Origin: Coprobacillaceae bacterium UN01-12pH3A
GTDB taxonomy: Bacteria; Bacillota_I; Bacilli_A; Erysipelotrichales; Coprobacillaceae
Length of the DNA: 64,000 bases
Direction: 5' to 3'
Assembly: GCA_027676805.1 (NCBI GenBank)
Contig: JAQENU010000001.1
Coordinates: 310,001 to 374,000 of the forward strand
The position numbers and the translations under genes were made by a program. How positions within the stretch are numbered: the stretch's first letter is position 1; each line of letters opens with the position of its first letter. Below the pieces are notes generated by a model, which had not been told where the DNA came from, searched no databases, and saw only the letters and a list, made by a program, of their open reading frames with translations. This document shows positions 17,913-53,300 of this stretch, piece by piece.

Positions 17913-19398
17913 AGTATCTTACTGCTCCTGCATATGTAGATTGCCAATAAGATCCATAGATGCTTGTTACTTCTACTCCTGTCTCTTCACTTCCACAGTG
18001 AACCATTTGACCGTCACCTAAATAAATACCAACATGTCCAAGAGATCCTACTGTATTAAAGAACAGTAAATCACCTGGCTGGATATCATTTACCTGACTT
18101 CCCCCAGCATATTGTGCATAGGTTGTACGTCCGATAGAAACTCCTGCTTGTGAGAAAACATAGCTTGTAAATCCTGAACAGTCAAATGCAGTTGGACCTG
18201 ATGATCCATATACATAAGGACTGCCTACTTTACCAACTCCGATAGAAGTCACTGATCCGTTTCCACCGCCTGAGGCAGAGAAGGTTGGTGCAGTGTAAGG
18301 TTCATTTACAGTGACTGAAACTGAACGGCTTGCTTCGTTTCCAGCTTCATCTTTTACAGTCATAATTAAAGTATAGTTACCCGGTGTGTTTACATCGATA
18401 TATCCATCAATTGCAACATTTTCTGTCACATCACCGTCTTTATTGTCGACAGCAGCGATATAAGGACGCACATCAAAATTTTCTCCTGTTTCAATTTCAA
18501 AAGAATCTTGACTTACCATAATCACTGGTGCACTCAAATCTTTTACTTCTACTTTAATACTGTCTTCTGTTTTGTTTCCAGAAGGATCGGTTACTGTAAA
18601 TTTAGTTTCATAAGTTCCGATTTGCTGTGTATCAATTGCTGATTCAAACTCAATCGTTAACGCATCAAAATCTGCCGCATTATCGACAATTTCTGCATAA
18701 TCTCTTAAATCAAAGTGCTGACCAAAATCGGTCTCTACTTCGTTTCCAGAAGTCCAATTAACTTTCGGTGCTTCAACATCTGTAATAACAAATTGGTAAC
18801 TTGCTTCATTGTAATTTCCTGAAGAGTCGCTTACACTTACCAAAACATCTTGTGGTCCTACTTTTGAAGTGTCCAATGGACTGAGTATGTTCATGAACAT
18901 TGTAATATCTCCATCCGCATTATCTTTAGCTAAGATGTAATGAGATAATTCGCTTGGTGCATTGACATTAATTTTTAAAGTACCATTATCATTAATTAAA
19001 TCCTTATTCGCGGTATTCAAAGTGAATTCTGGTTTTTCTTCATCAACGACATGTACCAAAACATCTTTAATTGCCTCATTTTTACAACGATCACTTACGG
19101 TTACACTCACATAATAATCACCTACACGATGATTATCTAAACGAGAGGTATCCATTTCTACGACTAAATCTGCCACTTCGTCATGATTATCACTAATCAG
19201 TAAACGACTGGCATCCAGTTCTTGACCATAAGCAAGTTTAATTTCATCAGTTGCAATGATTGGTGCCTCCTTATCTAAAGCGGTATACCCTACAATTAAA
19301 AAGGAAAATACACTAATCATTGGAATAAACATTGCTTTGCGCCCATCGACATGCTTCTTGACGGTAGCCAATAAACGTTTCAACGACTGAACGTTCAT
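17911..19398 (-). CDS. Secreted NlpC/P60 peptidoglycan hydrolase with Ig-like repeats
   Basis: This 495-residue protein has an N-terminal membrane anchor or uncleaved signal (AMFIPMISVFSFLIVGYTAL, residues ~23-43). About four tandem Ig-like modules follow, each opening with a D-x-x-A/K-P-x-I/F-x-x pattern (DKEAPII, DEEKPEF, DVEAPKV, DLSAPVI) and carrying a V-SD-x-N motif. The C-terminal NlpC/P60 domain shows TAFDCSGFTSYVF (catalytic Cys, near 405), GSLGHVGIYLGDG (catalytic His) and MVHCGS. It probably cleaves stem peptides at the surface. The ATG at 19398 follows GGGGG by six bases. It is monocistronic with its own promoter and terminator. Confidence 0.9.
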   Translation of the reverse strand: MNVQSLKRLLATVKKHVDGRKAMFIPMISVFSFLIVGYTALDKEAPIIATDEIKLAYGQELDASRLLISDNHDEVADLVVEMDTSRLDNHRVGDYYVSVTVSDRCKNEAIKDVLVHVVDEEKPEFTLNTANKDLINDNGTLKINVNAPSELSHYILAKDNADGDITMFMNILSPLDTSKVGPQDVLVSVSDSSGNYNEASYQFVITDVEAPKVNWTSGNEVETDFGQHFDLRDYAEIVDNAADFDALTIEFESAIDTQQIGTYETKFTVTDPSGNKTEDSIKVEVKDLSAPVIMVSQDSFEIETGENFDVRPYIAAVDNKDGDVTENVAIDGYIDVNTPGNYTLIMTVKDEAGNEASRSVSVTVNEPYTAPTFSASGGGNGSVTSIGVGKVGSPYVYGSSGPTAFDCSGFTSYVFSQAGVSIGRTTYAQYAGGSQVNDIQPGDLLFFNTVGSLGHVGIYLGDGQMVHCGSEETGVEVTSIYGSYWQSTYAGAVRY

Positions 19399-19430
19399 CA
19401 AACGCCCCCTTTCACCTTATTGATATCTTC

Positions 19431-19460
19431 ATTATACAAGACTCAATTAAGAAAATCCAA
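19431..19460 (-). promoter_or_regulatory. Sigma-A-type promoter of the NlpC/P60 gene
   Basis: On the minus strand -35 TTGGAT (19460-19455), 18-base spacer and -10 TATAAT (19436-19431), just upstream of the GGGGG ribosome site. The rest of 19461-19661 is AT-rich with no gene visible. Confidence 0.65.
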
Positions 19461-19661
19461 TGATTTTAAAGATTTAACAAATTTTATTTAAATTTTTATC
19501 GACTATTTAGTAAATATATAAATAATATTTTACATAATTCTACATTATTATTTTATTTATATAATTATTTGCATAATTTTAATCTTGTCCAATTACCCCC
19601 AAAAATAAAACTCCTCTTTTTTATAAAAAATATTTACGATATTAATTCAAAATAGACATAG

Positions 19662-20060
19662 CTATTTAAAAAGATATTCAACATCTATGATTCTTCCATT
19701 AAATAAAGCTGAGTAATTAAAGTCTCCCATCAATATGGCTTTGTCATAAGCACTCTGTGCTTTATTTATATCAATGACTAACTCTATCATACTGCCATCT
19801 ATAAATTGACTGCATCCATTGATTGTATGTTCATCTGCTTTTGATTCAATCTTTATAACTCTGATTTGTCGATAATCATCAAAGGTTAGAATAAACCTAT
19901 CTCCGATTTCACCGTAATAGCTCCCCAATGCGACACCTATAAACCCATCTTGTGAATACAAAAGTCCATCAGCTCCAATCCCCATATTCGATTGAATAAA
20001 CTGGTATTGTTTTGAAGTGAAATCAGTAATCATTCGATAATCCATAAATGTTTTCTTCAT
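19662..20060 (-). CDS. C-terminal domain of a split membrane-anchored protein (downstream of an in-frame TGA)
   Basis: The 132 residues include FMDYRMITDFTSKQYQF and ADGLLYSQDGFIGVALGSYYGEIGDRF, and end in a beta-rich stretch. I recall this pattern from gut Firmicutes proteins with an N-terminal TM helix and coiled coil followed by such a domain; the function is unknown to me. The frame is open upstream to 20105 and continuous with the gene ending at 20106, separated only by one TGA codon (20108-20106). No ribosome site precedes the ATG at 20060. It is therefore either the distal part of a nonsense-mutated gene or is made by readthrough. Confidence 0.5.
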   Translation of the reverse strand: MKKTFMDYRMITDFTSKQYQFIQSNMGIGADGLLYSQDGFIGVALGSYYGEIGDRFILTFDDYRQIRVIKIESKADEHTINGCSQFIDGSMIELVIDINKAQSAYDKAILMGDFNYSALFNGRIIDVEYLFK

Positions 20061-20105
20061 CGTGTTCGAAGCACAAACTCCAAGACTGCTCCGATTAACT
20101 TCACT

Positions 20106-20351
20106 TCATTGTAAAGAAGAAGCATTTTTTAATAGTATTTCAGCTTCTTCTACCCTCTTATTTAAATCTTCTATCCGATCATATAATTGATCCGTATTTA
20201 TTTTTAACAGCTGTATTTCATTGTCTTTCTTAATTAATTCTGTTCGTATGTTCTGAAAATATAAAGTTGTATATAAAAAACTAATGACGATTATTATACA
20301 TAATGCAAGTCTAATACAGAATACTGCCTTTTTCATGCGTTTCCCTTTCAT
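20106..20351 (-). CDS. N-terminal TM + coiled-coil part of the split protein
   Basis: These 81 residues comprise one TM helix (residues ~8-30, CIRLALCIIIVISFLYTTLYF) and a heptad-like coiled coil (IRTELIKKDNEIQLLKINTD onward). A start at 20336 (MKKAVF) has GAAAGGG six bases upstream and is about as likely as 20351. The frame ends at a single TGA, then continues open in the same frame for 15 codons into the next annotated ORF. Upstream is a consensus promoter whose start region carries the same motif as the polymerase operon, which ties this gene to the element's regulation. Confidence 0.6.
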   Translation of the reverse strand: MKGKRMKKAVFCIRLALCIIIVISFLYTTLYFQNIRTELIKKDNEIQLLKINTDQLYDRIEDLNKRVEEAEILLKNASSLQ

Positions 20352-20423
20352 TTAATGAATATTCTCCATTCATATATTTTTATTAATTTCAGGACTTTCA
20401 CATAAAAATAATTGTTCGTTTCT

Positions 20424-20472
20424 TTAACTTTAGGATTAACCTATATTATATACATATTTAACTTTCTGTCAA
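20424..20472 (-). promoter_or_regulatory. Consensus promoter with MrpR-type operator candidate
   Basis: On the minus strand: -35 TTGACA (20472-20467), 16-base spacer, -10 TATAAT (20450-20445), then TAATCCTAAAGTTAA (20438-20424) over the predicted start site. This motif matches the direct repeats upstream of the cysteine desulfurase gene (TCCCAAAGTTAATAA) at nearly the same distance from the -10. Confidence 0.65.
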
Positions 20473-20503
20473 TATAATAAAGGTGAAATACATTATCTCA
20501 CCT

Positions 20504-21421
20504 TTACACAATTCTTTTAAACAAAGCTTTAAAATTATAATAATTGATATCTCTGCCAAAATTATTTAATATTTCTTCATATACCCGAGTTCTTTCTCCG
20601 CTGCTTTCTTCTGCATAGTAGTCACTATAAAAATCAAGATCTCTTTTTATTGCCTCATTAATAACATAATTGAGCATCCCACTTCTCATATAAGTTTTAG
20701 CATTCACCTTATTATTGAGAGTCGCTGAGATTCTTTTTCTAATCGCATCATTAAGATATACTTCATTTTCCGGAGCAGAGCTTAAAATCACGGTTGGCTT
20801 AAAAATTCTATCATGACTGGAATTTAATTGATATTCTTTCTCACCAGACCGTAATGTCTTTAACAAATTTATTTTTTTTAATCGCTCATAAAGGTCATCG
20901 GGAATCAGATCATTATTGCGAATTTTATTATAAACATAATATTTACCATTTTCCTTAGTGATGTCACTCATTTTCAAATGCGCCAATTCCTTCGTTGAAA
21001 AAACAATGCCATAATATAAGCATTCGATTAATGCAGCATCGTATTCTCCGGTTTGTGATTTTTTTATGACCTCAATATCTCTTAGAAACTGATCATGACT
21101 CATGTAATTAATAATTTTTTTATTATAATGTTCATCTAAAAATCTTGTGATAATCAGGTTTTCTAAAGGATTTTCTTTAATGGCATTCATTTGTACACAA
21201 TAATTAAAGAATTCTCTAAGGAGTGCTAACATTTTAGAACATGTTGTCTCTGCCTTTATTTTTACTGCTTCCTCTAAAATTTGACTTTTTGAAAATTCAC
21301 TCAAATCTTTGCCATATTGCAATTCTTTTTCTTTATACAGATCAAATATTTTATCGGCTATTTTCTTTTTAGTGTCAGGTAACAGTTCATAAAAACTATC
21401 TTTTAATACATTACTATACAT
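20504..21421 (-). CDS. MrpR/YopR-like phage repressor (tyrosine-recombinase fold, no catalytic residues)
   Basis: This 305-residue protein has the layout of a tyrosine recombinase: an N-terminal SAM-like core-binding domain (residues ~1-100) and a C-terminal catalytic-like fold. The diagnostic arginine region reads YYGIVFSTKELAHLKMSDI without the catalytic Arg. The HxxR box is replaced by TYMRSGMLNYVI and no nucleophilic Tyr is placed convincingly. SPbeta MrpR (YopR) is such a dead recombinase that holds lysogeny as a DNA-binding repressor; the N-terminus (MYSNVLKDSF...) also resembles that family. It has its own promoter, and I infer it controls the shared operator motif. Confidence 0.65.
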   Translation of the reverse strand: MYSNVLKDSFYELLPDTKKKIADKIFDLYKEKELQYGKDLSEFSKSQILEEAVKIKAETTCSKMLALLREFFNYCVQMNAIKENPLENLIITRFLDEHYNKKIINYMSHDQFLRDIEVIKKSQTGEYDAALIECLYYGIVFSTKELAHLKMSDITKENGKYYVYNKIRNNDLIPDDLYERLKKINLLKTLRSGEKEYQLNSSHDRIFKPTVILSSAPENEVYLNDAIRKRISATLNNKVNAKTYMRSGMLNYVINEAIKRDLDFYSDYYAEESSGERTRVYEEILNNFGRDINYYNFKALFKRIV

Positions 21422-21440
21422 TATGACACCCCCTTTCTTT

Positions 21441-21469
21441 ATTATATCCTAAGAAATTATCTACGACAA
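21441..21469 (-). promoter_or_regulatory. Promoter of the MrpR-like gene
   Basis: On the minus strand -35 TTGTCG (21469-21464), 17-base spacer, -10 TATAAT (21446-21441), then AAAGGGGGTGTCAT before the ATG. CTTAGGAT overlaps the -10 and weakly resembles the shared operator, which could allow autoregulation. Confidence 0.6.
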
Positions 21470-21573
21470 CATTTTCCATAGTATGATCCTTTGTTTCCAT
21501 TTATTTATTGCGACTTAGCCTGCTTATTTGAATAAAAAAACTTGTCCGCTATTATAAAACTGTTATTTGTTAT

Positions 21574-21927
21574 TCATGTCTCCGTCTTAAGGCTTCTTAT
21601 TCCGTTATCTATAAAATATTTCACAAGAATACCAAGTATAATGTTTTTTTCTCTGTTGTCAAAATCATCAATTAAATCAATATACTCTTGCTTGTTTTTT
21701 ATATAATAGAGTTTATAATTAATCTCCTCGTTTTCATAAGTAATTAACAGATATAGAACATCTATCATTTTCCCTATTAAGAGTGCTGCTAAACTTTTAT
21801 CATTAATAGACTGCGTTAATAACTTGTTATTGAATTCTATATAAATATCACCGCTATCCATTAAGAATATGTGATCTGTATTAAAACACAGTTCTGAAAA
21901 TATATTACACATCTTTACACTTCTCAT
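21574..21927 (-). CDS. Hypothetical protein of the accessory element
   Basis: This 117-residue acidic, Ile/Tyr-rich protein has no motif I recognise. It is soluble, with predicted mixed alpha/beta character (IYIEFNNKLLTQSIND, LYLLITYENEEINYKLYYIK). The ATG at 21927 has GGGAGAAGACA upstream and a promoter at 21993-22020. It lies 150 bases upstream of the MrpR-like gene on the same strand, so it may be a small partner in the lysogeny-like control region; that is inference from position only. Confidence 0.6.
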   Translation of the reverse strand: MRSVKMCNIFSELCFNTDHIFLMDSGDIYIEFNNKLLTQSINDKSLAALLIGKMIDVLYLLITYENEEINYKLYYIKNKQEYIDLIDDFDNREKNIILGILVKYFIDNGIRSLKTET

Positions 21928-21992
21928 TGTCTTCTCCCTTTATTGAAAATTTTCTGATTGCGCCTCTCAGATGACTACCCCTTACAAAATAA

Positions 21993-22020
21993 ATCTTAGC
22001 ATGGGAACAGTAAAAGTCAA
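21993..22020 (-). promoter_or_regulatory. Promoter of the 117-residue hypothetical gene
   Basis: On the minus strand -35 TTGACT (22020-22015), 16-base spacer, -10 TAAGAT (21998-21993). Confidence 0.55.
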
Positions 22021-22444
22021 TTCATAATTAGTATTTTTCAATATATAAAGAGATATAATATAGTATTTTCCTAAATAGTTAATTATTAATTATAAACTAA
22101 AAAAGTTACTCCGTTCAACCCGTGTAACCTTCCTTGCAACTAACATCTTAAAAAAGATGAAATGAAACGCTTCTAAATTTTAATTTGTTTCTATAATTAA
22201 TTATTTTTCATATACAATATATAATCAAAAACATTATAACATATATTAGAAATATTTAAATATTTTTTTCTATTTTTATACTATGCCATACTTTATTGAA
22301 TACGTTTATTCGTATAATCTATTATATATCAATTATTTCTCTTAATTAATTCTCGTTACTAAAAAAGAGATAAAATTACTAAACATGAAAGTATAAAGTG
22401 TCGTTAAAATACTACAACGTTAAATAAAAGTTGATAAAACTGTG
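22021..22444. other. AT-rich non-coding stretch between divergent transcripts
   Basis: No credible gene is visible. Small inverted repeats are present: GTTAC/GTAAC at 22105-22128 and CATCTT/AAGATG at 22144-22159. It is flanked by a minus-strand promoter on the left and the cysteine desulfurase promoter on the right, so it behaves as a divergent control region. Confidence 0.5.
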
Positions 22445-22472
22445 TTGACTTTCCTTTTGATCGCGTTATAAT
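22445..22472 (+). promoter_or_regulatory. Promoter of the cysteine desulfurase-RNA polymerase operon
   Basis: -35 TTGACT (22445-22450), 16-base spacer, -10 TATAAT (22467-22472). The predicted start lies near 22479, just before the first TCCCAAAGTTAATAA repeat. Confidence 0.7.
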
Positions 22473-22482
22473 TACCCTGTAG

Positions 22483-22532
22483 TCCCAAAGTTAATAATTT
22501 ATTTTTTCGCTTTATAATCCCAAAGTTAATAA
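22483..22532 (+). repeat. Two direct repeats of a 15-bp operator candidate
   Basis: TCCCAAAGTTAATAA occurs exactly at 22483-22497 and 22518-22532, 35 bp apart (a little over three helical turns), directly downstream of the -10. A near copy in reverse orientation sits at the promoter 20424-20472. Candidate binding sites for the MrpR-like repressor. Confidence 0.65.
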
Positions 22533-22569
22533 CTATTAAGACACTCATTTATAATAAAGGAGAATAATT

Positions 22570-23697
22570 ATGATTTATCTAGATCATGCAGCAACTACCT
22601 CTGTGCATAAACATGTGCAAAATGCCATTTATAAAAGCATGGAGCAGGATTGGCATAATCCCTCAAGCTCTTACCCGAATAGCTTGTTTATCAAGAACAA
22701 GATCAATAAGGTCAGAAAAGATATTGCCGATTACATTCATTGTCTTCCTGAAGAAATTATATTTACATCTTCGGGATCCGAAAGCAATAATTTAGCCATC
22801 AAAGGTTTTTTAAATGCTAATAAAAAATTTATTTTATTGATAGACCCTACCAGCCATTCCTCCATTATGAATATTAAAACAAGGCGTTCTAAACTAGAAG
22901 TCAATAGGAATGGACTTCTGCTGCCCACTTTTTTAATTGATCGGTTAGACAAAACAGATAAGCTTTATCAGTGTGGTGCATTAGTAACGGTCAACGGAGC
23001 AAATAATGAAATCGGTACGCTCCAAGACATAAAAAAAATCAGTACGATTGTTCATGCCTATCAAGGAATCTTACATATTGATGCCGTTCAATTATTTCCC
23101 GCTCAACGTATCGATGTTCAGAAACTGGGGATTGATATGATGAGTGTCAGCGGTCATAAATTTGGTTGTCCTAAAGGAATTGGATTCTTATATAAGCGAA
23201 AAGATCTGCACTTAGAGCCTTTAATCTCCGGTGAACAGGAAAATTCACTAAGAGGCGGCACGGAGAACACAGCTTACATCATCGGCTTAGGTGAAGCTAT
23301 ACAAATTCTAAATCAAACAGATCTCCGCTTAAAAAATACATACATTCGCTTTAAACGCGATTATTTCATTAAAGAATTAGAAGCTTTAGGCAATACCTAT
23401 TTAGTTGGAAGCAAAAGCCATCGGCTCCCAAATCATGTTAATATGTGTTTTATAGGAATAGAAGCTCACTCTCTGCTCTCTTATTTGCAGCTCTATGATA
23501 TAGAGGCTTCCTCAGGATCTGCTTGTAATAGCTTATCACTTTCCCCAAGCCATGTTATCTCTGCCCTATCTTTAGATAAAGCTGATCAGATGTGCTGTAT
23601 TCGTTTCACCCTTGATGAAAATACAACGATAAAAGAAATAGATACTGTAATTAATATTATAAAAAGATTTAAAAACAGCATCAGTAAAGGAGTATAA
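22570..23697 (+). CDS. Cysteine desulfurase (IscS/NifS-type), element-encoded
   Basis: This 375-residue PLP enzyme removes sulfur from cysteine to form an enzyme persulfide. It starts IYLDHAATTSVH, has TSSGSESNNLAIKG near 65, the PLP-binding Lys197 in SGHKFGCPKG, and GGTENTAYIIGLGEA. The catalytic Cys319 sits in SSGSACNS, so it looks active. AAAGGAG precedes the ATG. It heads an operon whose next gene, starting one base after its stop, is the YonO-like RNA polymerase. No scaffold (IscU), Dnd or tRNA thiolation gene is nearby, so its sulfur acceptor is unknown. Possible roles are tRNA or DNA thiolation, or Fe-S supply. Confidence 0.85.
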   Translation: MIYLDHAATTSVHKHVQNAIYKSMEQDWHNPSSSYPNSLFIKNKINKVRKDIADYIHCLPEEIIFTSSGSESNNLAIKGFLNANKKFILLIDPTSHSSIMNIKTRRSKLEVNRNGLLLPTFLIDRLDKTDKLYQCGALVTVNGANNEIGTLQDIKKISTIVHAYQGILHIDAVQLFPAQRIDVQKLGIDMMSVSGHKFGCPKGIGFLYKRKDLHLEPLISGEQENSLRGGTENTAYIIGLGEAIQILNQTDLRLKNTYIRFKRDYFIKELEALGNTYLVGSKSHRLPNHVNMCFIGIEAHSLLSYLQLYDIEASSGSACNSLSLSPSHVISALSLDKADQMCCIRFTLDENTTIKEIDTVINIIKRFKNSISKGV

Positions 23698-23698
23698 T

Positions 23699-25495
23699 TT
23701 GGAAACGATAAAAAAAGGATTAAAGATCTTATCATTAGAAGCTAAAGATATTTATTTATCTAATTTAAATGATCCATTTCATGGTTACGAAATAAAATAC
23801 AAATCAGGAGAAAAAGCAGGACAGTTTTTAGAGAAGAAATTTTGCAATACACTTGATTTCTCATTAGAACTTATTGAATTAAAAAATTTATATCATAAAA
23901 AAATAAGTAAAAAGAATTTTACGGTAGAGGTTAATCAATTTCCGGCTACTTTGCAGGTAATTAATCTCACCTATCATTATGCTTTAAAAGAATTTAATCC
24001 ATTTGGTCAAAACAGGTATGTTAAACTAGGAAGCCACTTAGAAGATTTAGAATTTGAAGATAGCGTATGTATCAAAAATGGTCAGCTCATTGGAATTATT
24101 ATTAATGAAAATGTAAAGCACCCAATCAGTGAAAAGCTATTAGGAAAATGCTTTCAAATAAAGGATGGGAAATATCAAGTTGCTAATATTCCAACAGTAA
24201 TGACAACTGCAATGCTCCGGGAATGGACATATTCTCAAGGATTTGTGGTTAATAAAACTCATTATTGCCGATACAAGCGATCCTCCGGTTCTTCTCGAGT
24301 TGGTAAATGCTTATTCATTAATACTTCTCTTTATCCCCATATACATAAATGGGAACTATGCGGTCTAAAAGTAAATGAGAAGACCAAAGCCGATCTGGCT
24401 GCCTGGGAAGCCTATATCTCACTTCCTCTGTCTTCAATTATTGATACAATCAAAATTGATCTCCATCAGATTTTAGTAATTGATGATTATGAATCTGTTT
24501 TTAAAGAAGAGGTAATTGAGGTCTATGATAAAGAGCAGCATCTAATGGTTAAAGAAAAAACTGCTAAGATAAAGAACAGTATTTGGGATGGTCAAACCCT
24601 ATTAGATCACTCACTTTTTGGTTCCTATTCTCATAAGGGCATGCTTTTACTGAGAAACCGTTTTTTCAAATCTGCCTGTTTTAACACCAATATTCAAAAA
24701 TGGTTTAAAGACCAGCGTATTACTGAAATCTCTCAATTAAATGGATTTACATTGGCGAAAGATATTCAGCAAATAAAAATGATTACTACTCCCAGCAGTA
24801 TTAAATATCTTAAATTCGGAACCTTAAAAAATTGGCTAAAACATGTTGACCCTCTCTTTGGCATTGTGAAATATGATAAGTCAACCCATTATTTTAATGG
24901 TTCTTATGTCCAAACCAATTATCAATTATTAAATACGATTCAACTGACCTATGAAGAAGTATCGCAATTAGTTAAACCCACTTTAGATTATTTGAATCTG
25001 ATTAAGCAGGATGCAAGCATTTTAAGATTTCATATTCATTATAATTTAAAAGCAAAGAAATGGGATACCCCTGCACAGGATAAAAATGAAATCATCTACA
25101 AGCTACTAGGATTAAATCGAAAATTCGAAAAAACTAAATTATATGCCGAATTTAGACAGGATCTTGTTACTTCCTATATTAAAAGTTTAAGAGCGGGACA
25201 CTTTTTAATTAGTGGCACTTATGCCACATTATTAGGCAATCCCATTGAAATGCTTCAAGAAAGTATTGGGCAGTTTAATGGAGTCAGCGTTCTAAAGAAG
25301 CAAAATGTCTGTTCCTACTTCTTTCCAGAAGGAAAACTTTTATGCTGCCGTTCCCCACACATCTGTGCAGGCAATATTTATTTACCTTATAATACACGGC
25401 ATCCCCTAATTGACAAATATATGAATATGACAAAAGAGATTATTGTTTTAAACAGTATAAACGAAAATGTATTACAGCGTCTGAATGGTGCGGAT
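23699..25495 (+). CDS. YonO-like single-chain RNA polymerase, exon 1 (joined to 25841-26818)
   Basis: Exon 1 encodes 599 residues from a TTG start one base after the desulfurase stop. A basic motif YKRSSGSSRVGKCLF (residues ~195-210) resembles the first double-psi-barrel region of two-barrel RNA polymerases. It ends LQRLNGAD, immediately followed by UAA. Across the intron the frame resumes FDSDAILITDN, rebuilding NGADFDSD. This corresponds to the catalytic NADFDGD of RNA polymerase beta-prime and the DxDxD of YonO, with Asp599, Asp601 and Asp603. The spliced protein has 924 residues, close to YonO of SPbeta (about 900). Unspliced RNA would give a polymerase cut off at its first catalytic aspartate. 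Confidence 0.75.
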
Positions 25496-25840
25496 TAACC
25501 ATAATCGGTCCGCCATATATAGTAATATATATGTAAAAAGATTTGTGAACCTAGATATCTAGGGTGTATAACTGACGTTAAGGAATAGTAGGAAATGACT
25601 ATTAGCAGTTATGCTGACAGGGAACGCTTTATTGAGCCAATCCTGTGCCAAGTATAAAAAGCAATTTTTATAAAGGTCAAACGAGCAATGGAAAGATGCC
25701 CTCGCGGTATAGACCATGTATATTCGATGTGAAATTCTTCGTTTAGAAGCGCAAGTCTGCCCTGATTTTAGGGTAAATGATATGCTCTACTCCCTCCGTT
25801 TAACGGAATTCAAAATACTGGGCAACCAGGGGTAAGATGG
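25496..25840 (+). ncRNA. Group I self-splicing intron in the RNA polymerase gene
   Basis: 345 nt, no internal ORF. P1: exon GCGGAU (25490-25495) pairs with GUCCGC (25508-25513), ending in the required U-G wobble at the 5' splice site. P2: CATATATA/TATATATG (25514-25533). P4 elements ACAGGGAAC (25617-25625) and CAATCCTGTGCC (25639-25650) resemble those of the phage T4 td intron. P7: GAGCA (25683-25687) with UGCUC (25783-25787). The 3' end GGGGTAAGATGG closes with the terminal G at 25840. P10: 25843-25847 with 25503-25507. Its features fit subgroup IA. Splicing restores the reading frame exactly. Confidence 0.85.
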
Positions 25841-26818
25841 TTTGATTCAGATGCAATCCTCATAACAGATAACCCAATTCTTTTGAATAAAGCAGAACTT
25901 AATTATGATTTATTTAAAGTCCCTACCTGTAACGTGAAATCAGTTAAGACAAAACGTCAGTTTTCTTTATCACAAAAAACTGTTTTAGATATCAAGACCA
26001 GTGAAAATCAAATTGGCATGCTGGTTAATTTATCTCAGGAATTAAACACTCTGCTTTTTCACAATCTAAATCATCAAGCAAAAGATAAAGATATTAAAAC
26101 AATTTATTTAGATATATGTAAATTAGCGGTTATGTCCGGCTTAGAAATAGACAGCGCAAAAAAAGAGTTTTCAATCAGCAGCAACAATGAATATAAAGAA
26201 TTGAAAAACAAGTGGAAAAGAGAACAAAACGGAAAAGTAATCAAGCCTTATTTTTTCAAAAAAATTGCTCAAATAAAGGGATATGAGCAAGATACAAAAA
26301 AAGAATATGTTTTTCATGATTCAACTATGGACTATCTGCAAAAAATCATTAATATCTACTTAGTACAAAACCGAAAAAAGAAGCAGACAAAAAATGAATA
26401 TCTCCCATTCTATCAAATAATCAATCAAGAGGGATACAATGTTCACCACATCACAAGAGAACAAGTCGCTAAAATACTTCAGTTATTTAAAGATTACTCA
26501 GCGTTTAAAAAAAGATTATTTTCTTTATCCTCTTTAGATGAAAATAAAAATGCTCTTTTGCAAATAGAAAAAGAGAAATTATATCGTACCATAGGGAAAA
26601 CAAAGCTAAGTCGTAATACCATTATCTATCTGCTTAAAACTTTCGACCATGACCAATATAAATCCTTTTACTTGTCCGCTCTCTACATATTATTTGGCTA
26701 TCCCAACAGTTCTTTTTATCAGGTAATCAAAGAATCTCAGGAGAAACTGCCTGTTATAAAAGAGGATCCTTGTGGAAATCTTCAAATATTAAGCAAAAAA
26801 TATAAAAAAATAGAGTAA
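25841..26818 (+). CDS. YonO-like single-chain RNA polymerase, exon 2
   Basis: Exon 2 encodes 325 residues starting FDSDAILITDN, the second half of the catalytic loop. A conventional reading from TTG 25883 would lose the catalytic residues and has no ribosome site. The remainder is helix-rich and basic (KKEFSISSNNEYKELKNKWK, then a C-terminal Lys-rich end), as expected for bridge-helix and trigger-loop-like parts, though I cannot place those by eye. It joins in frame to exon 1, giving residues 600-924. I infer that it transcribes the downstream tail genes by analogy with YonO, which transcribes SPbeta late genes. Confidence 0.7.
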   Translation, partial: FDSDAILITDNPILLNKAELNYDLFKVPTCNVKSVKTKRQFSLSQKTVLDIKTSENQIGMLVNLSQELNTLLFHNLNHQAKDKDIKTIYLDICKLAVMSGLEIDSAKKEFSISSNNEYKELKNKWKREQNGKVIKPYFFKKIAQIKGYEQDTKKEYVFHDSTMDYLQKIINIYLVQNRKKKQTKNEYLPFYQIINQEGYNVHHITREQVAKILQLFKDYSAFKKRLFSLSSLDENKNALLQIEKEKLYRTIGKTKLSRNTIIYLLKTFDHDQYKSFYLSALYILFGYPNSSFYQVIKESQEKLPVIKEDPCGNLQILSKKYKKIE

Positions 26819-48614: not shown

Positions 48615-49715
48615 ATGAGTTTATATGGAATAGATATTTCGAGTTGGCAAAGTGATCTCGACATAAATCAAATTGCCTGTGATTTTATTATTGTTAAAGC
48701 AACGGAAGGAATTGAGTATGTAAATCCTGCTTTTAATAAACATGCACAACAAACCGTCAATTCTAAAAAGAAACTAGGATTTTACCATTATGCTCAAAAC
48801 AGATTATTTTCTGCTGAGGAAGAAGCCGATTTTTTCCTTAAAACAGCTCAAGAATATTTTTATAAAGGGGTTCCAATTTTGGATTGGGAAGAAAATACTC
48901 AAGATGTTGAATGGGCGTTTATCTGGCTCCAACGTATTGAACAGGCTACCGGAGTTAAGCCAATAATTTATATGTCAGAAAGTGTAGTTAATCAACATGA
49001 CTGGTCAAGCATTGCGAATCATGGATATGGACTATGGGTTGCAAAATATAAAGACTATACACCAAATTTTAATTTTGATACAACCGCTATGAGTAATCCG
49101 CCAGCAGTTATGCATTGGCCTTTTTATGCAATGTGGCAGTTTACTTCTGTTGGACAAATCGATGGGTATCTTGGCAATCTGGATTGCAATATTTTTTATG
49201 GAGATCAAACAGCATGGGATCAGTATACTAAAAAGAAAGAGAACAGTTTTGAAGATATTGCCACGTCAACTAACCCCTCATTTAAGATTGGAGACAAAGT
49301 TAGATTCAGCACTTGTTATCAATCTGCTTATGACAATATCGAAAAACATTTAGACGCTTCTATGATGCTTAAAGATCAAGGTGTTATTACAGCCATCTAT
49401 CCTAATACCAATAATCCATATTTATTAGATGATGGATTATGTTTCGTTAACGATGGCGATATTCGAGAGGTTTTAAACTCAGCCTCCCCATCTAAAGTCA
49501 CATTCCCGCAGTCTGGTGGAACTTGGAATGTTTACCCACTAAATACAGCCCCAGTATATGGAAATCAGATAGGACAAATCAATCCAGGATATTACGGTGA
49601 TTTAACATATACGATCGTAGATCGTCCAATGAATGATGTAGTTACAATTGATACAGAGGCATTCGGTCGAGTAAATGTTTATGCTTCATTCGATGATGGA
49701 GTCCGATTTAATTAA
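48615..49715 (+). CDS. GH25 endolysin (N-acetylmuramidase) with C-terminal wall-binding repeats
   Basis: A start at 48615 (MSLYGIDISSWQ) follows GAGGAAAGATAAG. The 366-residue protein has a GH25 catalytic domain (residues ~1-195) with GIDISSWQ (Asp) and LDWEENTQ (catalytic Asp/Glu), plus ATEG and YMSES motifs. The C-terminus contains an SH3b-like module with KIGDKVRFSTCYQSAYD and NPYLLDDG near residues 220-290. A second wall-binding module with GTWNVYPLNTAPVYG and PGYYGDLTYTIV follows. It cleaves peptidoglycan after holin opening. Confidence 0.9.
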   Translation: MSLYGIDISSWQSDLDINQIACDFIIVKATEGIEYVNPAFNKHAQQTVNSKKKLGFYHYAQNRLFSAEEEADFFLKTAQEYFYKGVPILDWEENTQDVEWAFIWLQRIEQATGVKPIIYMSESVVNQHDWSSIANHGYGLWVAKYKDYTPNFNFDTTAMSNPPAVMHWPFYAMWQFTSVGQIDGYLGNLDCNIFYGDQTAWDQYTKKKENSFEDIATSTNPSFKIGDKVRFSTCYQSAYDNIEKHLDASMMLKDQGVITAIYPNTNNPYLLDDGLCFVNDGDIREVLNSASPSKVTFPQSGGTWNVYPLNTAPVYGNQIGQINPGYYGDLTYTIVDRPMNDVVTIDTEAFGRVNVYASFDDGVRFN

Positions 49716-49722
49716 TTTTAAT

Positions 49723-49758
49723 GGTTAGAAAGATAAATTCTTTCTGACCTATTTTTTT
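49723..49758 (+). terminator. Intrinsic terminator at the end of the tail/lysis genes
   Basis: GGTTAGAAAG (49723-49732) and CTTTCTGACC (49740-49749) pair with one G-U, followed by ATTTTTTTG. Confidence 0.8.
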
Positions 49759-49893
49759 GACATTACATGGCTTTTCTGTTTTTTAAAACATACCTTCATT
49801 TATTTTCTTAATAAACATTTATACAGAGGTGTTGCACAATACTGGTATATTTTTTTGTTAATTGGTATAATAAATACATTAAGGAGGTTAGTT

Positions 49894-50244
49894 ATGATAA
49901 AAATTGAAATCGTTCAAGACTTTATTAATCCTGATGAAGAACTTACAAAAGAAAAATGTGCCATGTATATACGACACATCAACGATACACTAAAGCAGGC
50001 TCGTGCTTCTATTTATGATTTGTTTTTAGGAGGTAAAAGTTTAAAATATGCGATCTATATTCTAGCATTCTCCATGATGCTTTACTTTATTTTTAAGCAG
50101 CCCTTTATTTTATCCTTAACCTTATTTGAGATTATAGGATACCTTCTGCTTTCTGTATCGTTAAGTGAGTATCTGACTAAAAAATTAAAAAGCAGTTTAA
50201 AGATTCAGCGTAAGTATTTTATTGATCAATTTGAAAAATTATAG
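49894..50244 (+). CDS. Two-TM membrane protein at the element's right edge
   Basis: The start at 49894 has AAGGAGG seven bases upstream. The 116-residue protein has an N-terminal soluble region (IEIVQDFINPDEELTKEKCAM), two TM helices (YAIYILAFSMMLYFIF, FILSLTLFEIIGYLLLSVSL) and a basic end. TATAAT at 49866-49871 may be its promoter. It does not resemble a phage protein I know and may be chromosomal or a passenger gene. Function unknown. Confidence 0.6.
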   Translation: MIKIEIVQDFINPDEELTKEKCAMYIRHINDTLKQARASIYDLFLGGKSLKYAIYILAFSMMLYFIFKQPFILSLTLFEIIGYLLLSVSLSEYLTKKLKSSLKIQRKYFIDQFEKL

Positions 50245-50261
50245 TAATCTTTACCAAAGAT

Positions 50262-50298
50262 AAAAGGATGTCCCCTAGAATCAGGAGAACATCCTTTT
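50262..50298 (+). terminator. Bidirectional terminator between convergent genes
   Basis: AAAAGGATGT (50262-50271) and ACATCCTTTT (50289-50298) form a perfect 10-bp stem; the loop contains a partial inner pairing. It serves the small TM gene and the opposing ABC permease gene. Confidence 0.8.
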
Positions 50299-50302
50299 TA
50301 CA

Positions 50303-53300
50303 TTATTCAATACTCTTTAAAGACTCAATCATATCAATTTCATCCAAGCTCTTGCGCATGATGCGGTTGATAATAAACGTAAACAGAACTGTTAAGACTA
50401 AGGCATAGACATAACTCATTAAATCCAAAGAACGATAAAACATCGTTGCATCAATTTCTACAGTACGGATAACGAATTGATGTAGCAGAGTTCCAAACAC
50501 CAATCCTAAAACAGCACCAATGCCCGACAAGAGAATATTTTCTCTAAAGACATAATCATAGACTTCTTTTGGATAAAAACCTAGCACCTTTATTGTAGCA
50601 ATCTCATTCATACGTTCTTGTATGTTGATATTGGTTAAATTATATAAAACAACAAAGGCAAGTATCGCTGCCACCACAATGATGATCACCACAACAATAT
50701 CGATACTTTTAATCATCGTATTAAAGTTTTCACTTGCGGTAGATATGAACTGCACACTCTTGACATGCTCCTGTTCCTTTAAAACAGTGGCAAGCGGATC
50801 TTCCAGCTCAGTATTATTGTCTTTCATCCTGAATAAAATCTGATTGTAGGATAGTGTTTCCTTGGTCAAATCTTCATACATGGTTTTTGACATATATACA
50901 TAATGTCCATAATAGTTTTCACAAATATTAGAAACTGTCACTGAGTATGGCTGATCATGAATAGTCAGCGTAATTTCTTCTCCTGACTTCACTTTCAATA
51001 GTTCAGCAGTTTTCTTACTAAGTATGACCCCATCATCTTCTAAAGGCAATTCATTGAGATCATCATCATAGTAATGCACTAAATCATTATAACGTTCTGA
51101 CAATACCCTAAATGTTCCATTCAACTCTTTCGCGTGTTTCGAAGAGGTAATCGCTGTTGATTTTTCACTGATCGCCATTGCTTCCGCCACATTATATTGA
51201 GCACTGACATTATTCACTACTTCCGTTAAATTATCACTGTCGATTTCATCATCCAGGCTGACACTTCCATCAAAGTTCCATACTTCATTAAATTGTAACG
51301 GGATAATTTGTTTAATAGAATTTTTAATACCAAACCCGGTAACAATCAAAGCACTGCAGCCGGCAATCCCCGCAATAGACATAAAGAAACGTTTTTTATA
51401 GCGGAACATATTTCGGACTGTAACTTTCTGATTAAAGTTTAGACGCTTCCAAATTACATTGATCTTTTCTAAGAAGATACGTTTCCCAAGTTTCGGCGGT
51501 TTAGGACGAAGCAGCACAGCCGGATTGCTGTTTAATTCATCATAGATCACATACGCCGTAACTGCCAATGTAATGATTACCGAAATAAACAATGTTAATG
51601 GAATAATATACGGGGTTAAATGAATATGAATAGCGGCATTCACCTGATAAAGCAGACTTGTATATAAATAATAGATAATATTCGTAAAGAATACTGTACC
51701 AAAAGCAATTCCTAATATACTGGCAAAGAAAGTAGCTAATAATACATATTTAATATATAAAAGCATAACATCTTTCTTTGAATAGCCTAATGCTCTCAGC
51801 GTTCCATTTTGCAGACGCTGCTCCTCCACCATACGTGTCATCGTGGTCAGTGAGACTAAAGCCGCCACTAAAAAGAACATTAATGGGAACACCTTCGATA
51901 AAGCATCCATTGCCTGCGTATCATTTTGATAGCTGACAACCCCGGCATTTTCGTTTTTCGTCAGCGAATAGAGAACACCATCGGGAATATCCTTGATTTT
52001 CTGCTGCGCTTCATCAATCTGTATTTTCGCATCATCTAACTGCGCTTTTGCTTCTTCTAATTGCCGTGTAGTGTCAATTTCTGTATTTTCCAAAGCGGCT
52101 TCTTGCTTCTGCACTTCCAAAGAAGCCTGCTCTAATTCATTATTGGCTTTCGTTAATTCCACATTCGCATTGATCAACTGTTTAATACCATCTAATTTTG
52201 TTTGCAGGTCATCACTCATGACATTCACTTTATCTTTTAATTCTTCCAAGCTTTTATTCGCTTCCTGATTTATTTGATCTAAAGAGCCTTCAATCTGATC
52301 CTGCGGCGGCAAATCCGGAGCAACAGGTTTATCCGGCAAAGTAACGTCTACTTTTGGAATCGCATTGATCTCTTCTTGATATTGTTTGATTTTCTGATTT
52401 AAAGAGTCAATTTCTTCTCCTGCCGTAGCCGTCTGTTCATTCAGCTGATTTTGTGCATCTAATAACTGCTTTTTATTTTCAATGATCGCTATTTTACCTT
52501 CCAGCAATTGAATCTTAGCATTATTGATCGTCTTAGTGAATTCCTCTTTATTGCGATTATATTCCTCTAATCCATCTTCATATTCTTTTAACGGACCACT
52601 CAGCTCCTCTTCATAGCGTCCGACAATTTCTTTTTTTGTCTTTACCAAATCATTTTGCAGCATGTCTGTAATATTCGCTTTAACCGTGCGGGTCACATCG
52701 TCATACTGATCATCGAAATAGCCAATTGTCTGACTTGCTTCATACCCCACCACAATTTCATTATATATATTTTCATGATTGCGCAGATCTCCTAATTCAC
52801 TTGGGATCGCAAGCGTTTTTATGTCATTGTTTCTTGCGATAATAAACCCTTCATTTTCAGCATTCGTATAAGAGTTTGTTCCTCTTTGAATATTTGAAAT
52901 ATAACGGGAGTCATGAATAATACCTACCACTTTCAAATTCAATTCACCAGTATCATTTTGAATGGTGATTGTTTTATCCAATAAATCTAAATCTTCAAGG
53001 CGTGCATCAATGAGACATTCACCATCATTTTCAATGTTGCGTCCCTCGATAATATCAGGCGCATAAAACTTCTGAGTCTGTCCATGAGCAATCACATTTA
53101 CTTCTTTTTTCAAGTCTTCCTGTTTTAATACAACATCTGTGCGATAGGCTCCCTCAATCTTGCTGACTCCTTCGATAGCAGCAATTTTATCGATATCTGT
53201 CTGAGTAAAGCCAAAAGACGAAATAAGATTTAAATCTCCATATTCATGCTGTTTTAAATAAGCATCCATCGATTTTTGCATTGTTATCGGGGTATTTCTT

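What the first reader, a model, noticed from the sequence alone, without database searches (positions are those of the whole stretch)
25490..25847. Group I intron inserted exactly inside the catalytic Asp triad of an RNA polymerase gene
Exon 1 ends NGAD and the intron begins with the stop codon TAA; exon 2 resumes FDSD, so splicing rebuilds the D-F-D-S-D catalytic loop. P1 (25490-25495 with 25508-25513, closing U-G), P7 (25683-25687 with 25783-25787), P10 (25843-25847 with 25503-25507) and the terminal G 25840 are all visible. Elements near 25617-25650 resemble the T4 td intron as I remember it. With no homing ORF, RNA splicing becomes an absolute switch for making an active polymerase; unspliced mRNA gives a protein ending at the first catalytic Asp.
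Basis: partly seen in the sequence, partly recalled or inferred. Interest (0 to 1): 0.95.

Follow-up and report, generated by a model that had tools for sequence, protein, structure and literature searches.

The report
Intron splitting a phage polymerase's heart
In a prophage-like stretch of a likely gut bacterium, the gene for a predicted phage RNA polymerase is interrupted exactly inside its predicted catalytic motif by a predicted self-splicing RNA intron, so active enzyme would be made only after the intron removes itself; related genes carry inserts at this same motif again and again, so it looks like an insertion hot spot rather than a one-off.

Summary
Confirmed: window 25496-25840 (345 nt) lies exactly between GAT (Asp) and TTT-GAT-TCA-GAT (FDSD) of a polymerase-like gene (599 + 325 codons); the uninterrupted relative P0003 reads straight through. 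It is very likely a group IA intron. Rfam gives only 19.0 bits (cut-off 50), but T4 td also stays below (40.3). The evidence is comparative: 12 distinct inserts at two sites 5 nt apart share one fold with co-varying helices (13 of 19 and 24 of 31 pairs changed on both sides; above every shuffle and slide for covariation). In 8 of 8 inserts at the window's site the exon end pairs with the insert's own guide through a terminal U-G. Five of 12 carry a NUMOD4-HNH homing endonuclease; the window's carries none. Of the 120 listed protein relatives 19 end at this motif, and the trait needs 14 changes on a 121-protein tree. A phage PhiPA3 polymerase-subunit intron is a published precedent. Splicing itself is not shown here.

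The parts
23699..25495 (+). Exon 1 of the predicted phage RNA polymerase gene (599 aa, TTG start, ends NGAD)
   Evidence: phrog_8308 E 2.6e-71
25496..25840 (+). Predicted group IA intron, 345 nt; opens with TAA in frame with exon 1, ends with G
25841..26818 (+). Exon 2, starts FDSD, 325 codons and stop
25490..25495 (+). P1, exon strand GCGGAU; last base U pairs with G
25508..25513 (+). P1, internal guide GUCCGC
25514..25533 (+). P2 hairpin, 7 pairs (25514-25520 with 25527-25533) around the loop AGUAAU
   Evidence: 7 of 7 pairs with a change on both sides
25550..25563 (+). Hairpin called P2.1 here (25550-25555 with 25558-25563)
   Evidence: 4 of 6 pairs with a change on both sides, 100% paired
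25564..25567 (+). P3 5' strand, candidate only (GUGU; partner 25749-25752 GCGC)
   Evidence: strings printed; changes on one side only, not tested for covariation
25617..25646 (+). P4 (25617-25622 with 25641-25646) and P5; same layout as T4 td
25647..25677 (+). P6 (25647-25649 with 25675-25677) and P6a (25653-25660 with 25665-25672)
25683..25687 (+). P7 5' strand GAGCA, expected guanosine-binding helix
25783..25787 (+). P7 3' strand UGCUC
25818..25829 (+). P9-like hairpin CUGG-GCAA-CCAG with a GNRA tetraloop
   Evidence: GNRA loop in 12 of 12 inserts, 4 of 4 pairs with a change on both sides

Best explanation
Window 25496-25840 is a 345-nt insert placed exactly after the codon of the first aspartate of the D-F-D-S-D motif of a predicted YonO-like phage RNA polymerase gene, and it is most likely a group IA self-splicing intron that would be cut out of the message by the intron RNA itself. 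Likely course: a ribosome translates exon 1 and stops at the TAA that opens the intron (stop codon shown; its effect inferred); the exon end GCGGAU pairs with the guide GUCCGC (possible pairing shown); a guanosine bound in P7 attacks after U25495, the freed exon attacks after G25840, and the exons join (inferred from the family). Unspliced message would give a 599-aa protein with one of the three catalytic Asp. The insert most likely descends from a homing intron: relatives at the same site and at one 5 nt upstream carry a NUMOD4-HNH endonuclease in 5 of 12 cases. It likely persists because the target DNA can hardly change and only exact removal leaves a working enzyme.
For: Exact junction against an uninterrupted relative. 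Twelve distinct inserts at two sites 5 nt apart share the fold. Covariation: 13 of 19 pairs of P1, P2, P2.1 (score 0.630; shuffled mean 0.226; best slide 0.211) and 24 of 31 pairs of P6, P6a, P7, the stem after P7, P8 and P9-like (0.536; 0.175; 0.163). P7 as GACUA/UAGUC, GAUCA/UGAUC or, in the window alone, GAGCA/UGCUC. U-G ended P1 with the insert's own guide in 8 of 8 at the window's site, 0 of 5000 shuffles for all eight at once. P4-P5 layout as in T4 td. Stop codon at the junction in 10 of 12. NUMOD4 and HNH_3 domains in 5 of 12. Exon 2 open and conserved.
Against: No splicing data. RF00028 only 19.0 bits; L001 29.8 and L115 25.6; none of the 11 motif inserts scanned reached the cut-off (the two RF00028 hits there lie in second inserts). 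P10 no better than chance. P3 not established. P8 pairs in only 53.3% of cells. Two rows (L035, L073) are one column out of register for P1 in A5. L035's guide pairs better (7) with other genes' exon ends than with its own (5); the other 7 of 8 are not beaten by a foreign exon. At the upstream site P1 has only 4 pairs, which chance gives often (64 of 5000 for all four). The shuffles do not correct for kinship. The minimum-energy fold of the stretch is stable (z -3.09) but cannot show the group I pseudoknot. Polymerase identity is by weak family matches and no structure.
Confidence: 0.9

Rival explanations
1. The intron is kept as a real control device: splicing efficiency, which may follow translation or growth state, sets when active polymerase and hence late transcription appears.
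For: A stop codon sits exactly at the junction; the review PMC3073962 (passages) reports that translation of the upstream exon helps bacterial group I splicing and cites a paper on T4 introns that links it to growth state (that paper is not held). The window's intron has no homing ORF.
Against: 91 of 120 listed relatives have no insert; insert presence changes at least 14 times on the tree; the next nearest relative P0003 lacks it. Nothing in the sequence shows regulation.
Confidence: 0.1
2. A dead gene: the insert no longer splices and the polymerase is a pseudogene.
For: No splicing shown; P10 weak; low Rfam score.
Against: Exon 2 keeps 325 open codons at 67% identity to P0003; P7, P4, P1 and the GNRA hairpin pair fully, with changes matched on both sides; the close relatives P0001 and P0002 (95% and 88%) end at the same residue.
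Confidence: 0.06
3. A split enzyme: two separate polypeptides that assemble without splicing.
For: The gene finder lists two ORFs, 23699-25498 and 25883-26818; jumbo-phage polymerases are split into several chains (PMC7598289, passages).
Against: The second ORF's first start codon lies after FDSD, so the two remaining Asp would be lost; in 10 of 12 interrupted genes no ATG, GTG or TTG lies in frame between the last stop and the motif (exceptions L001 and L117, one GTG each).
Confidence: 0.02
4. An intein, removed from the protein.
For: The window's insert length, 345, is a multiple of three, and inteins also favour conserved sites (PMC2814812, passages).
Against: It opens with TAA; 10 of 12 inserts put a stop at the junction and 8 of 12 lengths are not multiples of three.
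Confidence: 0.005

Closest known systems
Group I intron with HNH endonuclease gp210 in the virion RNA polymerase beta-subunit gene of phage PhiPA3 (PMC11620839, passages)
   Same: Group I intron in a phage polymerase of the two-barrel kind, directly after conserved aspartates; HNH homing enzyme as in 5 of 12 relatives here
   Different: There the beta subunit (fidelity-linked Asp of RpoB) and an intron with its endonuclease; here the catalytic triad and, in the window, no endonuclease. The PhiPA3 sequence was not compared here
T4 td group IA intron
   Same: P4-P5-P4' layout and P7 core (AACGACUA / AUAGUC; td read from NC_000866); also below the Rfam cut-off (40.3 bits)
   Different: Host gene (thymidylate synthase) and endonuclease family (I-TevI, GIY-YIG; annotation); the only longer exact matches to the window intron are 11 and 10 bases
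Staphylococcus phage MarsHill polymerase beta-subunit intron
   Same: An insert with its own ORF in a phage polymerase gene (annotated exon junction), with a similar P2 stretch (E 0.4)
   Different: Sits after HAD in HADSPR, not in the catalytic triad
SPbeta YonO and crAss-like phage RNA polymerases
   Same: Single-chain two-barrel polymerases with an Asp triad (PMC5467207, abstract and passages; PMC7886860, passages); YonO is inactive when the three Asp are changed. The island also has an MrpR_N_CB gene; that MrpR is an SPbeta regulator is recalled
   Different: The SPbeta review passages name introns in bnrdE and bnrdF, none in yonO (PMC8270828). Direct sequence comparison with YonO was not made

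Membership tests
Group I intron | P1: exon end paired with an internal guide, U-G at the splice site | tested here: met
   8 of 8 at this site
Group I intron | P7 helix, covarying | tested here: met
   5 of 5 pairs in 12 of 12; 2 of 5 pairs with a change on both sides
Group I intron | P4 and P6 | tested here: met
   P4 4-6 pairs in 12 of 12; P6 100% paired, 2 of 3 pairs with a change on both sides
Group I intron | P3 pseudoknot strand | tested here: inconclusive
   candidate GUGU/GCGC, changes on one side only
Group I intron | Terminal G | tested here: met
   window G25840; 12 of 12 as drawn
Group I intron | P10 with exon 2 | tested here: inconclusive
   5 pairs, 32.7% of shuffles as long
Group I intron | Rfam RF00028 at gathering score | tested here: not met
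   19.0 bits against 50; T4 td also fails with 40.3, so this cut-off does not define membership
Group I intron | Guanosine-started self-splicing | not testable with these tools
   needs RNA
Subgroup IA | Extra stems between P7 and P3 (P7.1/P7.2; feature recalled) | tested here: inconclusive
   one such stem covaries (7 of 7 pairs, 79.8% paired), but P3 is unproven; td likeness in P4-P5 and P7
Mobile (homing) intron | Own homing endonuclease | tested here: not met
   no ORF over 50 codons opening with M, V or L in the window's insert; present in 5 of 12 relatives
YonO-like two-barrel RNA polymerase | Invariant Asp triad | tested here: met
   D, D, S, D invariant in 45 of 45 full-length relatives; present in the window split over the exons
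YonO-like two-barrel RNA polymerase | PF05183 match or double-psi barrels | tested here: inconclusive
   3 of 5 relatives just above the cut-off, P0003 and P0005 without a match; window exons no Pfam hit; no solved structure found; structure prediction switched off

The most novel reading that the evidence does not exclude
A headless, tailocin-like tail-and-lysis island keeps its own YonO-like polymerase, and a ribozyme seated in that enzyme's catalytic triad gates the whole operon: the particle is made only in cells whose translation state lets the intron splice.
Probability: 0.08. Interest if true: 0.8.

Novelty: new member of a known kind. Interest (0 to 1): 0.5.

Why it matters
It adds the catalytic loop of a phage RNA polymerase family to the places that group I introns colonise, with a clean case of repeated insertion: two sites 5 nt apart, 12 distinct inserts, guide sequences that mostly follow each gene's own exon. 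It also explains why protein databases hold relatives of this polymerase as proteins that stop at NGAD: the second half is cut off at the intron's stop codon. If splicing responds to translation, late transcription of these elements would be tied to the host's state, which could be tested in Thomasclavelia cocleata DSM 1551, whose prophage-like locus (L095) has an intron at the same site.

Tried and rejected
Intein: rejected; a stop codon at the junction in 10 of 12 inserts, 8 of 12 lengths not multiples of three. Group II intron: not among the five relaxed Rfam matches. Same site in MarsHill: rejected. P10: rejected as evidence. Pattern scans of viral contigs gave 55 and 23 stretches; four of the listed contigs, the same four in both scans, were already known to carry the insert; the others were not tested, so no count is taken from them. 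Order-wide genome search: 1 of 315 genomes matched, the T. cocleata one. No shared 12-mer between 19381-22600 and 49501-50400 as an attachment site. The first two T4 stretches fetched did not hold td. Intron against exon DNA identity to L001 (74.5% against 66.8% and 64.6%; shuffled intron 55.6-67.4%) is too slight a difference to argue transfer.

Rows dropped: 6 of 152 sequences lacked a flank; L146 (gap of 1 beside an N) is counted neither as whole nor as interrupted. The 17 interrupted rows hold repeats (L001, L002, L046, L047, L095; L064, L065: same insert length and junction letters; not compared over full length), hence 12 distinct. The 128 uninterrupted rows hold repeats too, so 128 of 146 is no frequency. 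In one search the best 120 of 2538 matches were listed, and only these were counted. One search kept 80 of 178 relatives.

Full report
What was checked. P0003, 926 aa and uninterrupted, aligns to exon 1 (70%, 599 aa, no gap) and to exon 2 (67%, 323 aa) and reads GCDFDSD between them. The letters D-x-D-S-D are invariant in 45 of 45 full-length relatives aligned.

What the gene is. Exon 1 matches phrog_8308 (E 2.6e-71, unknown function), exon 2 none. Of five relatives scanned, three pass PF05183 (RNA-dependent RNA polymerase) narrowly and two do not; neither exon has a Pfam hit. YonO of SPbeta is the characterised enzyme of this type: it transcribes SPbeta late genes and is inactive when its Asp triad is changed (PMC5467207, abstract and passages). 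That the window's protein works likewise is inferred.

What the insert is. Rfam gave nothing at its cut-off and 19.0 bits in a relaxed scan. None of the 11 relatives scanned has a hit at the cut-off in its motif insert; L001 and L115 reach 29.8 and 25.6. As a control, T4 td, a known self-splicing intron, gives 40.3 and also fails. Comparison carries the argument. Of 152 sequences, 146 had both flanks; 128 run through the motif, 17 are interrupted there, one has an assembly N. The 17 make 12 distinct inserts: eight after the first Asp codon (window, L001, L035, L064, L073, L075, L115, L128) and four 5 nt upstream (L054, L070, L105, L117).

Guide pairing. In 8 of 8 at the window's site the exon end pairs with a guide within the insert's first bases, 5 to 8 pairs, with U-G at the splice site: GCGGAU/GUCCGC, GCGAU/GUCGC, GUGAU/GUCAC, GCAGAU/GUCUGC and so on (for L115 the first script ranked another register first). 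No set of shuffles in 5000 matched all eight; the window alone is matched in 1.04%, L075 alone in 14.7%. Seven of eight guides are not beaten by another gene's exon end; L035's is. At the upstream site P1 is 4 pairs and weak by itself (64 of 5000).

Helices. P1, P2 and P2.1 in 8 inserts: 13 of 19 pairs with changes on both sides, score 0.630 against 0.226 shuffled and 0.211 for the best slide. P6, P6a, P7, the stem after P7, P8 and the GNRA hairpin in 12 inserts: 24 of 31, 0.536 against 0.175 and 0.163. P8 fares badly (53.3% of cells paired). P7 comes as GACUA/UAGUC, GAUCA/UGAUC and, only in the window, GAGCA/UGCUC. P3 is only a candidate; P10 is no better than chance.

Origin. Five of the 12 inserts (L064, L073, L128, L070, L117) hold a reading frame, between the two P4 strands or reaching into that space, with NUMOD4 and HNH_3 domains; the window's has none. 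L035 and L070 have a second insert further on that Rfam does recognise (56.6 and 73.7 bits), and their exon 2 frames stop inside it after 110 and 114 codons; the other ten frames run 324 to 353 codons. Of the 120 listed protein relatives, 91 run on well past the motif, 19 end at it, 9 end 107-128 residues after it, and P0006 ends 12 residues after it. On a quick tree of exon 1 from 121 proteins the interrupted state (20 rows) needs 14 changes, 13 forced by well-supported branches, against 18.9 for shuffled labels, so it is patchy, with some clustering. The nearest kin P0001 and P0002 are interrupted, the next, P0003, is not. This is what homing to conserved DNA predicts; a published analysis finds most group I introns and all inteins preferentially in conserved regions (PMC2814812, abstract and passages).

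How it likely works. A stop codon falls at the junction in 10 of 12 (L075 after 2 more codons, L035 after 23). The review PMC3073962 (passages) says most group I introns have such a stop and that translation of the upstream exon helps splicing. So a ribosome would finish at the splice site, the RNA would fold and splice, and later ribosomes would read the joined message. Whether splicing is regulated is untested, and most listed relatives do without an insert.

Setting. The gene lies in a stretch of about 30 kb with lower G+C (0.28-0.36 against 0.35-0.41 outside) between host-like genes that end at 19401 and resume at 50303. Its tail, holin and lysozyme genes are recognisable, but no terminase, portal or capsid match appeared in the scans run (not every ORF was put to both libraries). 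Host: unknown; P0002, 88% identical, is named from a Beduini MAG.

Known or new. A group I intron beside conserved Asp of a phage polymerase is in print for the PhiPA3 beta subunit (PMC11620839, passages). Crass-like phages are rich in introns and inteins; the passages seen name MCP, PolB, primase, ATP_43b and TerL, and a figure legend on the transcription block mentions an intron endonuclease (PMC7886860). My searches for an intron in YonO or in the DxDGD loop listed no paper whose title or abstract describes one; most subscription journals are not held, so this is no proof of absence. I rate it a new member of a known kind at a striking site.

Noticed in passing
window 19662-50244: About 30 kb of phage-like genes (MrpR_N_CB, polymerase, HU, DUF6558 tail, tail fibres, holin, GH25 lysozyme) without a terminase, portal or capsid match in the scans run: a possible headless, tailocin-like island or a decayed prophage.
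   Followed up: partly
window 22570-23697: A cysteine-desulfurase-like gene (Aminotran_5) directly upstream of the polymerase; relatives lie near the polymerase in 23 of 150 loci, repeats included, 50% identical in the T. cocleata group.
   Followed up: partly
L070:4019-4348, L035:6374-6678: A second group I intron in the same polymerase gene, above the Rfam cut-off; 9 of 120 listed proteins end 107-128 residues after the motif, several at VEI-E/D, which fits a second hot spot.
   Followed up: partly
L151:3001-3332, L152:3001-3133: Intron-like sequence similar to the window's insert between genes of other phages: beside EFP01 genes annotated anaerobic ribonucleotide reductase, and in Enterocloster phage CB457P1.
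   Followed up: no
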